Below are positions 55,517 through 60,493 of a stretch of 64,000 nucleotides of DNA, in pieces (within the stretch, counting starts at the first letter, position 1; each line of letters opens with the position of its first letter). The position numbers were made by a program, and so were the translations under genes. This stretch comes from Candidatus Poseidoniaceae archaeon (GTDB lineage Archaea; Thermoplasmatota; Poseidoniia; Poseidoniales; Poseidoniaceae): contig JASLKC010000024.1 of NCBI GenBank assembly GCA_030747785.1, positions 1-64,000 on the forward strand, read 5' to 3'. Below the pieces are notes generated by a model. The model was not told where the DNA came from and did not search any database. It worked only from the letters and a program-made list of their open reading frames with translations.

Positions 55517-56461
55517 ATGGGTATCACAGCAATGATTCCGAATATGACCTTCAAACAATTGCAAGATGAAGCGAATAGTCGCTGGGGTGAAATTTGGGAT
55601 TCTGGTGCTGACCGCATCCGAGTTCTACTCCTAATTCCACGCACTCAAAGGAAATTGCTCGAACTTCATGGTGATATGATTGAACATGGACAACCTGTGA
55701 TGGCGATTTTCCATAGACCTCGCGTAGAGGCACATCTCCTTGAGGAAGTGGGATTCGACCCACGCTTAGCTTCATTCCAATTTCTCGACATAGCAAGTGC
55801 CGATTTGGGCCCGTGGATGCAGCAATTAGTAACTCAAGAAGGATGGTTGCGAAGTATTGTTGAAATTGCCCCTGTACCATTTGTTGTCGACATACCTAAT
55901 CAAAGGACCTTTGAGCGACACAATATCCTCTGTTTCAGACACGCTGATCTTCCCTCACTTTCGAATTATCACCTTCCATATCCAATTGATGCTCTGGTCG
56001 GTAAGGCCTTCGTTTCGCTTCCACGCCGACAAGCCGCAGAACTTGCAAAGCAACAGGCGGAAATACTCGGTGTTGGACTTGCAAAACCTGAACCAGTAAA
56101 GGCCGAAGTCCCAGTTGTAACTGATACACCTGAGCCTGTAGTTCCAAACCCTGTGCCTGAAATGGAGGTTGCATTTGTTACTGAAATGGTGCCTGAGCCA
56201 ATGGGTGAAGCATCCGTTCCACTCCCTGGTGCACCTCAGCCAGAGGTGGAAGAAAGTGTTCCACTCCCCAGTAAGGCAGTTGAAGTGGTAAATGATATGC
56301 CTGAAATCGAAATCGAATTCCGTGGCATAGTGCAAACATTGCTAGATGAAGGAGTGGACCCCTCAGAAATGATGAGTGACCCTCGACTTGAAGATGTTCA
56401 GGAAAGAGCAATGGCAATCGACTTTGAGACTTGGCCGGTTTTCATGCAAATGGTAACTTGA
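55517..56461 (+). CDS. Hypothetical protein with Pro/Val/Glu-rich middle
   Basis: 314 aa continuous ORF between asd and zinc-ribbon gene, typical composition; no family recognised. Confidence 0.6.
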   Translation: MGITAMIPNMTFKQLQDEANSRWGEIWDSGADRIRVLLLIPRTQRKLLELHGDMIEHGQPVMAIFHRPRVEAHLLEEVGFDPRLASFQFLDIASADLGPWMQQLVTQEGWLRSIVEIAPVPFVVDIPNQRTFERHNILCFRHADLPSLSNYHLPYPIDALVGKAFVSLPRRQAAELAKQQAEILGVGLAKPEPVKAEVPVVTDTPEPVVPNPVPEMEVAFVTEMVPEPMGEASVPLPGAPQPEVEESVPLPSKAVEVVNDMPEIEIEFRGIVQTLLDEGVDPSEMMSDPRLEDVQERAMAIDFETWPVFMQMVT

Positions 56462-56501: not shown

Positions 56502-56696
56502 ATGGCATTCTGTATCTCATGTGGACAGATGCAAACCGATGGCACCCGTTTCTGTCGTTTTTGTGGCGGGCAGCAGCCTAGTGACCAATTAGTAGCTCGC
56601 CTTCGAATGGAGGCTGAAGCGATTCGTTACCAAATTCAACAATTGCAGCAACAACAGATGCAGCAGATGGGACATGGCCAGCAGCGCCGTTGGTGA
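56502..56696 (+). CDS. Small zinc-ribbon protein
   Basis: CISCGQMQTDGTRFCRFCGGQQPS (zinc-ribbon_2-like) then Gln-rich coiled tail; overlaps next gene start. Confidence 0.7.
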   Translation: MAFCISCGQMQTDGTRFCRFCGGQQPSDQLVARLRMEAEAIRYQIQQLQQQQMQQMGHGQQRRW

Positions 56697-57250
56697 TGCC
56701 TTTGCGACTTCGCCACTTGGCGATGGCTCTGTCTAAATTGCCAAGGCATCCTTGTAATGCAGTTGAACTTGAACAATATCAGACCGAAGGAGACCTCGCA
56801 GCAAATTGGTTGATGAGAATTGATGCTATCGATTCCTTAGCCGGGAAAAAGGTCCTTGACCTCGGGGCTGGAAATGGAATTCTTGGCCACGGTGCATCAT
56901 TGCTTGGTGCAGATGTTATCTTTGTCGAATGTGATAGCAATGCAGCAACTCTGTGTCGTGATTTGGGTGAAACGATAGAGGGCCGGGTTGGTGAGGTCGA
57001 ACTTCCGGATGTTGATATCGTAATCACCAATCCTCCATGGGGAGTTCAGACCCATGGTGCTGACAGAATATTCATTGATTCTGCACTAGGAGTTGCACCG
57101 ATATTACACATAATGCACAGTGCTCAAGCTAGTCATCTACCAGAAGGGGACCTCATCATGGAAGCCGAATTCCGAATGCCGGCCACTTATGCTCATCACA
57201 CAAGTAAAACCGGCTCGACAAACGTAGCATGTTGGCGTATCACTCGATGA
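56696..57250 (+). CDS. METTL5-like (COG2263-type) SAM-dependent methyltransferase
   Basis: VLDLGAGNGILGHGASLLGA, ITNPPWGVQTHGADRIFIDSAL; starts ATG 56696 or GTG 56693. Confidence 0.82.
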   Translation: MPLRLRHLAMALSKLPRHPCNAVELEQYQTEGDLAANWLMRIDAIDSLAGKKVLDLGAGNGILGHGASLLGADVIFVECDSNAATLCRDLGETIEGRVGEVELPDVDIVITNPPWGVQTHGADRIFIDSALGVAPILHIMHSAQASHLPEGDLIMEAEFRMPATYAHHTSKTGSTNVACWRITR

Positions 57251-57338: not shown

Positions 57339-58754
57339 ATGGCGAGCATCGTCACCCCCGGTACCGTAATTGGTACAACAGATAGCAACACTCCTGGTGA
57401 AGGAGTAATTGAAAGAGATGGCAACTTAGTTGCCTTATTGACAGGAACTCCAGTTGAAAATGACAATGTCATTTCAATCGAAGCTGGAACAGAACTACTC
57501 CGTATCGAAGCCGGAGACTACATCATCGGTGAGGTCGTCAAACTCAACGAAAAAGCAGGTGAAGTAATGGTTAAATCTGTAATTGGAAAACCAGATCGTT
57601 CAATCATGGCTGACCAATTGTACGCACAATTCCATGTTACAAGAATTTGTGATCGTTTTCTACACAATACCGCTGACGGATTACGTCGTCGGGATTTGAT
57701 TAGAGCAAAGGTTACCGAAGCAAAAAATGTCATTCGTATCGACATGCGTGAAGATCCAACATGTGGAGTTCTTTGGGCGCTTTGCCCCCCATGTGGTGAT
57801 ACATTCGTAGCCGAGCAAAATGGAGATTGGAATGTGGTTTGCCCAACTTGTGACAACCGTGCTTTCCGTGCTCTTGCTGATGATTACGGTGGCGAGGCAG
57901 GTAAGGCTGCCCTCAATGGCTCGGGTAAGCGCTGGGGCAAAGAAGCAGAGTCACTATTCGCCAAAGGTAGCGCAGGACGTGCTACTTTCATCGCTGAAGA
58001 TGTGCGTGAAGATGGACGTGCTCGTGAATACTTCCGATTCGAAGGCGATGGTGGCCGTGGTGGCGGTGGACAACGCCGTCCAAGAAATGACCCCGGTTGC
58101 AGACTATTCATCGGTGGCTTGTCACGTGATGTATCCGAAGATGAACTCAAGTCCAAATTCAAGGACCATGGAAAGGTCACAGACTTCGCATTGATGACTG
58201 ATGATACCGGCACTAGCCGTGGATTCGCATTCTGTACTTTCGAAAAGAAGGAAATGGCAGATGCAGCGATTAAGGCACTCGATGGGCTTCGCCTAAAGGG
58301 TCGTAAAATCGGTGTGCGCGATGCTGATGCACCCAAGGAAGAGAAGCCGAGACGAAAGCGCCCTGAAGGTGCTCGAATCTATGTTGGAAATCTGCCGTTC
58401 AAGGCTAGTGAAGATGAACTAGCGGCATTGTTCAAAGATCACTGCGATAGTGTCCACGCCGAGTGGGCAACAGACCGAAATGGCCGGCGCAAGGCATTCG
58501 CATTCGTGACCATCAAACCTGAGTCAAAGGGAGATGAAGTGGCGAAGAAACTCAACGGAGTCGAATTATCTGGCCGTACTCTAAAGGTGGAATTATCCAA
58601 ACCACGAGAGGGTGGAAACCGCAGAAATGATAACCGCTCAAATCGCGGTGGTAAGCCTAGTGAAAATGGCGGTAAATCATCTCGAGAACTTCGTGCTCTA
58701 CAAGAAGAAGAGCAAGATGCAAAGAAGAAGCCCCGTAGGCCGAAAAAGGACTGA
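57339..58754 (+). CDS. csl4: Csl4-like exosome subunit (S1 + zinc ribbon) fused to RGG linker and two RRM domains
   Basis: N-terminal PGTVIGTTDSNTPGEGVIERDGNLVA; S1-like AGDYIIGEVVKLNEKAGEVMV; CPPC...CPTC ribbon with RALADDYG; RRM1 RLFIGGLS...SRGFAFCTF; RRM2 RIYVGNLPF...RKAFAFVTI. Confidence 0.85.
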   Translation: MASIVTPGTVIGTTDSNTPGEGVIERDGNLVALLTGTPVENDNVISIEAGTELLRIEAGDYIIGEVVKLNEKAGEVMVKSVIGKPDRSIMADQLYAQFHVTRICDRFLHNTADGLRRRDLIRAKVTEAKNVIRIDMREDPTCGVLWALCPPCGDTFVAEQNGDWNVVCPTCDNRAFRALADDYGGEAGKAALNGSGKRWGKEAESLFAKGSAGRATFIAEDVREDGRAREYFRFEGDGGRGGGGQRRPRNDPGCRLFIGGLSRDVSEDELKSKFKDHGKVTDFALMTDDTGTSRGFAFCTFEKKEMADAAIKALDGLRLKGRKIGVRDADAPKEEKPRRKRPEGARIYVGNLPFKASEDELAALFKDHCDSVHAEWATDRNGRRKAFAFVTIKPESKGDEVAKKLNGVELSGRTLKVELSKPREGGNRRNDNRSNRGGKPSENGGKSSRELRALQEEEQDAKKKPRRPKKD

Positions 58755-58762
58755 GTGTTAGT

Positions 58763-60493
58763 ATGGTTGAGTCGGGAGAGCCCTCCTGGCTAGTCATCGA
58801 TGGCTATGAAGACGAGCCTGCTGCATTCGGAGTTCCTCCTTATGTTGGATTTCATGTCAGATACATTTGTGGAGTATTAGAAGAGGCTGGGATCTCATAT
58901 GAATACCAAACTATTGACCAATACCGTATCGAAGGTGCATCGCTCGAAAATAGGCTTGGAATTGTGGTATTAGCAGGAGCAATTGTCCCAGGGAAATATC
59001 TCAGGGGAACTCCTATTTCTCTGAAGGAAACTAGAACAATCATCTCTGGAGTCTCTGGAGGAATACCAATTCTTTGCGGTGGATGGGCGATTAGAGGATG
59101 GCGCCAACAAGGTTGGAACCCTCTACGAATGAATCTCTTCCTTGCAGTTCAAGACACAGATGCAACCCTCTCTCATTACTTGAGAAATGAAGAATGGAAG
59201 CACCAGCGGAGAAATTCGGATGAATGGACTCGGTGGGCACATGCTGGAGCTCGCTCAAAGGCCGTTAAAGATAATCCTGATCTAAATGGCCCACTGACCT
59301 ATGAAGTCGAAGTATACCAAGGATGTGTGCGCTACAAGCGTGGATGCAAATTTTGCATTGAGCCAAAGAAGGGAGTTCCTATTTGGCGCAGTCCAGAGGA
59401 CATCATCACAGAGGTAGGAATCGCTCATGATATGGGTGTTGAACATGTTAGACTTGGAGGAATGACTGACACCTATACCTACATGGCAGAAGGGGTTGTT
59501 GAGATGGAATACCCTCGGCCAAATCCTGAACCAATCGCTAACCTTCTCCATGGACTTCGAGAGGATGAGCGCCTTGGAATTCTCCACACCGACAATGCTA
59601 ATCCATCCATAATTGCAGAACATCTTGAGGAGTCCGAGGAAATTACTCGCACTCTCATCGATACACTATCCGACGGTGCTGTACTCTCATTTGGACTTGA
59701 GAGTGCGGACCCAACTGTCCATGAAGCAAACTGGCTCAATTGTAATAGCGACCAATTGAAATCAGCAATTTCACTCATCAACAAATACGGTAGAGGGCGC
59801 GGTGAAAGGGGGCTTCCAAAGCTATTACCGGGCCTCAATTTCATTGCTGGCCTCACTGGGGAAACCGCCCAAACCTACAACCTAAACCGGGAACTTCTTC
59901 ATGAACTAAAAAATGAAGGCCACATGATTAGAAGAGTAAATATCCGCCAGGTCGAGGGAGATGGTTTTCAAGAAATAGACGAAAAAGAATTTCATTCTTT
60001 CAAAAAAACAGTGAGGGAGGAATTCGATGGCCCTCTGCTTGAGGAGATGCTGCCTACTGGTACAATATTACGAGACGTATGGTGGGAATCCCACGAGGGA
60101 AGAACAAGATTACCTCGCCACCTAGAGGCGGCGGCTAGAGATACTAAGATACACGGAAAGGCGGGAATTACCTTTGGTCGGCAAATCGGAGCATATCCAA
60201 TTCTCATTGGAATGAATTATCTCGCACCACTAGAATCAACTTCCAACATTCTTGTCACCGGACATGGTGCAAGATCTATCACCGGAGTCGAATGTGGACT
60301 CAAGATGAATCAAATCACAGAGAAACAACTCGCAGCAATCCCAGGTATTGGTACGAAAAGTGCTTGGAACTTGGTCAGTGAAAGAGCAAAAGCGATCTCA
60401 AAGGGGCGAGATTTTGAAAATCTAGATGATTGGTTCAACTCGATTGATACACAATTGCCAGAACTGGCAAAGCAAATCATCGACAATCCTTGA
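58763..60493 (+). CDS. Radical SAM Fe-S protein (COG1031-like) with C-terminal helix-hairpin-helix
   Basis: YQGCVRYKRGCKFCIEPKKGVPIWRSPEDI cluster motif; LGGMTDTYTY; HhH LAAIPGIGTKSAWNLVSERAK. Confidence 0.85.
   Translation: MVESGEPSWLVIDGYEDEPAAFGVPPYVGFHVRYICGVLEEAGISYEYQTIDQYRIEGASLENRLGIVVLAGAIVPGKYLRGTPISLKETRTIISGVSGGIPILCGGWAIRGWRQQGWNPLRMNLFLAVQDTDATLSHYLRNEEWKHQRRNSDEWTRWAHAGARSKAVKDNPDLNGPLTYEVEVYQGCVRYKRGCKFCIEPKKGVPIWRSPEDIITEVGIAHDMGVEHVRLGGMTDTYTYMAEGVVEMEYPRPNPEPIANLLHGLREDERLGILHTDNANPSIIAEHLEESEEITRTLIDTLSDGAVLSFGLESADPTVHEANWLNCNSDQLKSAISLINKYGRGRGERGLPKLLPGLNFIAGLTGETAQTYNLNRELLHELKNEGHMIRRVNIRQVEGDGFQEIDEKEFHSFKKTVREEFDGPLLEEMLPTGTILRDVWWESHEGRTRLPRHLEAAARDTKIHGKAGITFGRQIGAYPILIGMNYLAPLESTSNILVTGHGARSITGVECGLKMNQITEKQLAAIPGIGTKSAWNLVSERAKAISKGRDFENLDDWFNSIDTQLPELAKQIIDNP

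What the first reader, a model, noticed from the sequence alone, without database searches (positions are those of the whole stretch)
57339..58754. Exosome cap subunit Csl4 fused to an RGG linker and two RRM domains
Seen: one 471-aa ORF carries a Csl4-like N-terminus, S1-like segment and C4 ribbon (CPPC...CPTC...DYG), then GGRGGGGQRRPR, then two units with clear RNP2/RNP1 pairs (RLFIGGLS/SRGFAFCTF; RIYVGNLPF/RKAFAFVTI) and a basic low-complexity tail. Established: archaeal Csl4 normally ends at the ribbon (about 180-200 aa), and RRMs are scarce in archaea. Inference: the fusion would give the RNA exosome (or an exosome-independent particle) a built-in sequence-selective RNA recruiter, resembling eukaryotic RRM/RGG cofactors of decay machines.
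Basis: partly seen in the sequence, partly recalled or inferred. Interest (0 to 1): 0.78.

Follow-up and report, generated by a model that had tools for sequence, protein, structure and literature searches.

The report
Exosome cap Csl4 fused to RRMs
In ocean archaea of the order Poseidoniales, the RNA-exosome cap protein Csl4 carries one or two extra RNA-recognition (RRM) domains, the only RRMs found in this genome, so the RNA-shredding machine probably has its own built-in RNA grabber.

Summary
Window 57339-58754 (+) is one 471-aa gene. Residues 4-184 pass NCBI's Csl4 equivalog cut-off (101 vs 90 bits), and the model of residues 1-252 matches solved archaeal Csl4 (2ba1) best. Two RRMs follow (Pfam). 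It is not an artefact: about 105 of 113 matching family genomes carry both halves in one frame, and so do two single-cell genomes. It is the genuine csl4 locus: single copy, with Rrp4, Rrp41, Rrp42 and DnaG encoded elsewhere in the genome. RRM-bearing Csl4 is characteristic of the order: the window's family (Poseidoniaceae) has two RRMs; its sister family has a CxxC-x17-CxxC zinc finger plus one RRM. A neighbouring order keeps a short Csl4 and a separate RRM protein. RNA-contacting aromatics are invariant in all 47 fused RRMs, and every segment is under strong purifying selection. The 'RGG linker' is over-stated: one RGG here; the linker's conserved part is another motif (LNxxGxRW...DxR). Most likely the RRMs are tethered RNA-capture arms on the exosome cap; a published laboratory chimera (an RNA-binding domain on Csl4's C-terminus) sped up RNA decay that way. 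RNA specificity is untested. I found no earlier description in the open-access library.

The parts
57339..58754 (+). csl4-RRM fusion gene, 471 aa
   Evidence: ORF; conserved full length in about 105 of 113 matching family genomes
57339..57890 (+). Csl4 part, residues 1-184: N-terminal anchor domain, S1-like domain and zinc ribbon
   Evidence: NF034126 101.3 bits vs cut-off 90; 2ba1 E 1.4e-15; fold match 2ba1_A E 5.4e-9
57783..57851 (+). C4 zinc ribbon, C149/C152/C168/C171
   Evidence: all four cysteines in 33 of 34 aligned Csl4 proteins; one f1 genus (L052) has two of them as serine
57891..58094 (+). linker, residues 185-252, basic (pI 9.8), with GGRGGGGQRRPR near its end
   Evidence: dN/dS 0.057; unique in the genome; low model confidence
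57912..58016 (+). conserved order-specific linker motif LNxxGxRW...AE...DxR, residues 192-226
   Evidence: R198, W199, D221, R223 in 30 of 30 f1+f2 proteins; absent from shorter Csl4 of f3 and outgroups
58095..58331 (+). RRM1, residues 253-331 (RNP2 LFIGGL, RNP1 RGFAFCTF)
   Evidence: RRM_1 79 bits; pLDDT about 80; matches HuR, Sxl, PABP tandem RRMs
58368..58601 (+). RRM2, residues 344-421 (RNP2 IYVGNL, RNP1 KAFAFVTI)
   Evidence: RRM_1 44 bits; pLDDT about 78; dN/dS 0.025
58602..58751 (+). basic low-complexity tail, residues 422-471, with a conserved short helix SRELRALxEEE
   Evidence: pI 10.6; predicted helix 448-461; SRE..A..EE recurs across f1

Best explanation
This is the one Csl4 of a Poseidoniales archaeon. 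It keeps the domains with which archaeal Csl4 caps the Rrp41/Rrp42 ring and carries a flexible C-terminal arm with two RRMs and a basic tail. Each Csl4 in the trimeric cap would add RNA-binding arms around the entry pore: the RRMs catch single-stranded RNA and help deliver it to the ring for 3'-5' decay or A-rich tailing, adding to or partly replacing recruitment through Rrp4 and DnaG. Shown: domains, conservation, selection, locus identity and presence of the partner genes. Inferred: assembly into the exosome, RNA binding, and the effect on which RNAs are degraded.
For: Csl4 and RRM families pass curated cut-offs; the fold of the N half is closest to Csl4 chains of exosomes. Single csl4 in the genome, at the ancestral locus: the upstream methyltransferase also precedes csl4 in f3 and in 2 of 3 outgroup loci checked. 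Rrp4-Rrp41-Rrp42 cluster and DnaG with NTD, TOPRIM and CTD are present. RRMs in 43/43 f1 and 38/39 f2 genomes; in these families almost every listed hit sits in a Csl4-length frame, apart from two weaker hits in G007 and contig-edge pieces. The three stacking aromatics (RNP2 position 2; RNP1 positions 3 and 5) are F/Y in 47/47 fused RRMs. dN/dS 0.025-0.083 in every segment. Fusing the RNA-binding NTD of DnaG to the C-terminus of Sulfolobus Csl4 gave strong poly(A) binding and faster decay than the Csl4 exosome; [quoted passage not shown]
Against: No experiment on this protein; no complex model could be run. RNA binding and specificity are unmeasured. The shallow alignment gave a low-confidence Csl4 model (mean pLDDT 51). 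RRMs can bind proteins instead of RNA.
Confidence: 0.7

Rival explanations
1. A variant of the best explanation: the RRM arms are a general, non-selective clamp that raises affinity and processivity for any single-stranded RNA and does not choose targets.
For: Basic tail and linker; DnaG NTD, the comparable domain, is called a general RNA-binding domain despite its poly(A) preference (PMC4227792). The sister family has a zinc finger and one RRM instead of two RRMs, which may mean loose specificity.
Against: Two canonical RRMs in tandem resemble selective readers such as HuR and Sxl; RRM2 is the most constrained segment (dN/dS 0.025).
Confidence: 0.35
2. The fusion works partly or wholly away from the decay ring, for example as an RNA chaperone or ribosome-maturation factor linked to the neighbouring methyltransferase and radical SAM genes.
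For: Conserved neighbours: methyltransferase upstream, radical SAM enzyme downstream in most f1 and f2 loci; short prokaryotic RRM proteins are mostly free-standing single domains (PMC9313427).
Against: Csl4 domains are conserved about as strongly as the RRMs; it is the only csl4 gene, and the other exosome genes are present.
Confidence: 0.15
3. The RRMs serve as protein-docking modules (for DnaG, a helicase or the ribosome) rather than RNA binders.
For: RRMs can bind proteins (stated in PMC9887622); the C-terminal helix and linker motif are conserved as interaction peptides often are.
Against: Invariant RNP aromatics in 47/47 domains point to RNA contact.
Confidence: 0.1
4. Assembly or frame-fusion artefact, or a decaying passenger extension.
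For: A few relatives show split or edge-cut frames, and a neighbouring order has two separate genes.
Against: About 105 of 113 family genomes, single-cell genomes AG-461-G23 and AG-404-K16, and dN/dS well below 0.1.
Confidence: 0.01

Closest known systems
Archaeal exosome Csl4 (NF034126; Archaeoglobus AF_0206, PDB 2ba1)
   Same: N-terminal domain, S1-like domain, C4 ribbon, single copy, same upstream gene as in relatives
   Different: adds about 285 residues: linker motif, two RRMs and a basic tail
Engineered Sulfolobus Csl4-NT chimera (DnaG NTD on the Csl4 C-terminus, PMC4227792)
   Same: RNA-binding domain attached to the Csl4 C-terminus; in vitro it raises RNA binding and decay by the exosome
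   Different: made in the laboratory with an unrelated domain; the natural fusion uses RRMs
RBM7 of the human nuclear exosome targeting (NEXT) complex (PMC5146272)
   Same: an RRM protein that directs RNAs to the exosome
   Different: separate polypeptide working with ZCCHC8 and MTR4; not a cap subunit and not homologous as a whole
Short prokaryotic RRM proteins (NCBIfam NF058537 Rbp_regulator type)
   Same: best prokaryotic RRM family match (109 bits vs cut-off 100)
   Different: single RRM of about 90 aa, not fused to an exosome subunit

Membership tests
Archaeal Csl4 | score over the curated equivalog cut-off | tested here: met
   NF034126 101.3 bits, cut-off 90
Archaeal Csl4 | NTD, S1-like domain and C4 zinc ribbon in order | tested here: met
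   ECR1_N over cut-off; full-length alignment to 2ba1; four cysteines. S1 is seen through the alignment and fold, not as a Pfam S1 hit
Archaeal Csl4 | fold of Csl4 | tested here: met
   top Foldseek match 2ba1_A, E 5.4e-9, then eukaryotic exosome cap chains; the model is of low confidence
Archaeal Csl4 | partner subunits encoded | tested here: met
   RNase PH pair, Rrp4-like gene beside it, DnaG; the Rrp4 match is strong (153 bits) but below that model's cut-off of 200
Archaeal Csl4 | assembles on the Rrp41/Rrp42 ring | not testable with these tools
   needs reconstitution or complex modelling
RRM (RRM_1) | over the gathering score, twice | tested here: met
   79 and 44 bits, cut-off 20.7
RRM (RRM_1) | RNP1/RNP2 aromatics and RRM fold | tested here: met
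   model and PDB matches
RRM (RRM_1) | binds RNA | not testable with these tools
   no assay
RGG-box protein | several closely spaced RGG repeats | tested here: not met
   one RGG in the linker and one in the tail
NEXT-type exosome adaptor (RBM7) | RRM protein separate from the exosome core | tested here: not met
   the RRMs are part of the cap subunit itself

The most novel reading that the evidence does not exclude
Poseidoniales exosomes are target-selective: up to six RRMs on a Csl4 cap read a sequence motif in particular mRNAs and set their lifetimes, an archaeal decay machine with a built-in mRNA reader evolved independently of eukaryotic exosome cofactors.
Probability: 0.35. Interest if true: 0.8.

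Novelty: new variant of a known kind. Interest (0 to 1): 0.62.

Why it matters
Archaeal exosomes have been studied in species where RNA choice rests on Rrp4 and DnaG, both favouring A-rich RNA. Here a whole order of ocean archaea has RRMs on the third cap protein, and in the genome at hand they are its only RRMs. That gives a natural test of whether a cap subunit can set which RNAs are destroyed, and a case where RRMs were joined to an exosome outside eukaryotes. Two sister families with different add-ons (RRM+RRM; zinc finger+RRM) on the same base allow the parts to be compared.

Tried and rejected
Artefact or frame fusion: rejected. Paralogue of a separate true csl4: rejected, one csl4 only. 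RGG box: not met in this protein. Linker motif elsewhere in the genome: none. Order of RRM duplication: unresolved; AU tests on 80 columns reject none of four groupings (p 0.08-0.34). Eukaryotic or bacterial donor of the RRMs: not tested, no outside RRM sequences were put in the tree. One family search was wasted on a wrong coordinate and a meaningless peptide. Ten paper searches gave no earlier report of a Csl4-RRM fusion; the library is open-access only. Fusions in other archaeal phyla could not be surveyed.

Full report
Observation. The ORF at window 57339-58754 (+) encodes 471 aa. Residues 4-184 match the Csl4 equivalog above its cut-off and align end to end with Archaeoglobus Csl4, PDB 2ba1, at E 1.4e-15, with all four ribbon cysteines. 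Two RRM_1 domains follow, 79 and 44 bits against a cut-off of 20.7. A model of the whole protein gives fairly confident RRMs (pLDDT about 80) whose best PDB matches are the tandem RRMs of HuR, Sxl and HuD, with PABP close behind. The model of residues 1-252 is weak (mean pLDDT 51) but still finds 2ba1 Csl4 first and eukaryotic exosome cap chains next.

Not an artefact. In the window's family 113 of 116 genomes match. By my count about 105 carry both halves in one frame; the others are mainly cut at contig ends or frame-shifted. Two single-cell genomes carry it. The three genomes without a match are 65-82% complete. Named relatives are Euryarchaeota or Candidatus Poseidoniales; one of 69% identity is labelled Poseidoniaceae, MGIIa-K1, so I take the window's family (f1) as Poseidoniaceae and the sister family (f2) as Thalassarchaeaceae, the only other named family of the order.

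Distribution. Of 296 genomes across the phylum, RRMs occur in 43/43 of f1, 38/39 of f2, 6/6 of the neighbouring order f3, and 19/208 of the rest. In f1 and f2 nearly all hits sit in a Csl4-length frame. In f3 and the rest, the hits listed are short free-standing proteins (frames of 81-158 aa), and Csl4 there is mostly an ordinary frame of about 185-215 aa. The window's genome has no other RRM. f2 has a different build: Csl4, linker, a CxxC-x17-CxxC zinc finger (TIGR04272, 49 bits, cut-off 36; Pfam zf_Tbcl_2), a spacer and one RRM.

Origin. On an 80-column tree the free-standing RRMs and the fused RRMs fall on opposite sides of a branch (100/94); f1 RRM1 (99/92) and f2 RRM (97/95) are each one group, while f1 RRM2 evolves fast and is scattered. 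AU tests reject none of the groupings tried, so whether RRM2 arose by duplication inside f1 is open. Simplest reading: an RRM joined csl4 in the ancestor of the order, from the separate-gene state still seen in f3. This is inference.

The locus. The methyltransferase gene upstream precedes csl4 in nearly all f1 and f2 loci, in f3 and in two of three outgroup loci; the radical SAM gene follows it in most f1 and f2 loci but was not seen beside csl4 in f3 or the outgroups. So the extension was added to the ancestral csl4. The genome also has the RNase PH pair with an Rrp4-like gene beside it, and DnaG; DnaG keeps its N-terminal, TOPRIM and C-terminal parts in alignment.

Signs of function. Across same-genus pairs with dS below 1, dN/dS is 0.041 (Csl4), 0.057 (linker), 0.065 (RRM1), 0.025 (RRM2) and 0.083 (tail) (16 overlapping pairs, so indicative). 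The three RNA-stacking aromatics are F or Y in all 47 fused RRMs. The linker has an order-specific motif, with R198, W199, D221 and R223 in 30/30 proteins, absent from the shorter Csl4 proteins and found nowhere else in the genome.

How it probably works. In Sulfolobus, Csl4 anchors to the ring through its NTD, is needed for tight DnaG binding, and has no poly(A) preference of its own (PMC4227792, PMC7667871). [quoted passage not shown] The natural protein has the same plan with RRMs instead. I therefore give 0.7 to RRM-assisted RNA capture by the exosome. Whether capture is selective is not decidable here.

Novelty. Paper searches found no description of such a fusion, within an open-access library. 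It is a new variant of a known kind: a true Csl4 with a known domain type in a new, conserved combination.

Noticed in passing
window 56690-57250: Small methyltransferase (Pfam MTS just over cut-off) with an NPPWG motif, METTL5-like from memory only; it lies upstream of csl4 in most of the phylum loci checked.
   Followed up: partly
window 58763-60493: Radical SAM protein with a weak helix-hairpin-helix match, directly downstream of csl4 in most f1 and f2 loci and 59-80% identical, more conserved than csl4; function unknown.
   Followed up: no
window 55517-56461: 314-aa protein with no Pfam match at 0.001, conserved beside csl4 in most f1 loci and some f2 loci.
   Followed up: no
L052 (genome G007): Two of the four zinc-ribbon cysteines of Csl4 are serine, so this genus may lack the bound zinc.
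   Followed up: no
L095 (G007 contig 15): Short RRM protein unlike the others; resembles a eukaryotic protein from memory, so possibly contamination of that assembly.
   Followed up: no
L077 and L078 (genome G031): One genome holds both an f1-type and an f2-type Csl4-RRM on different contigs, probably mixed binning.
   Followed up: no
L141-L147: Poseidoniales DnaG scores lower (314-352 bits for the main match) than DnaG of the neighbouring order (490 bits), with a weak match in the C-terminal part, the part reported to matter for exosome binding.
   Followed up: partly
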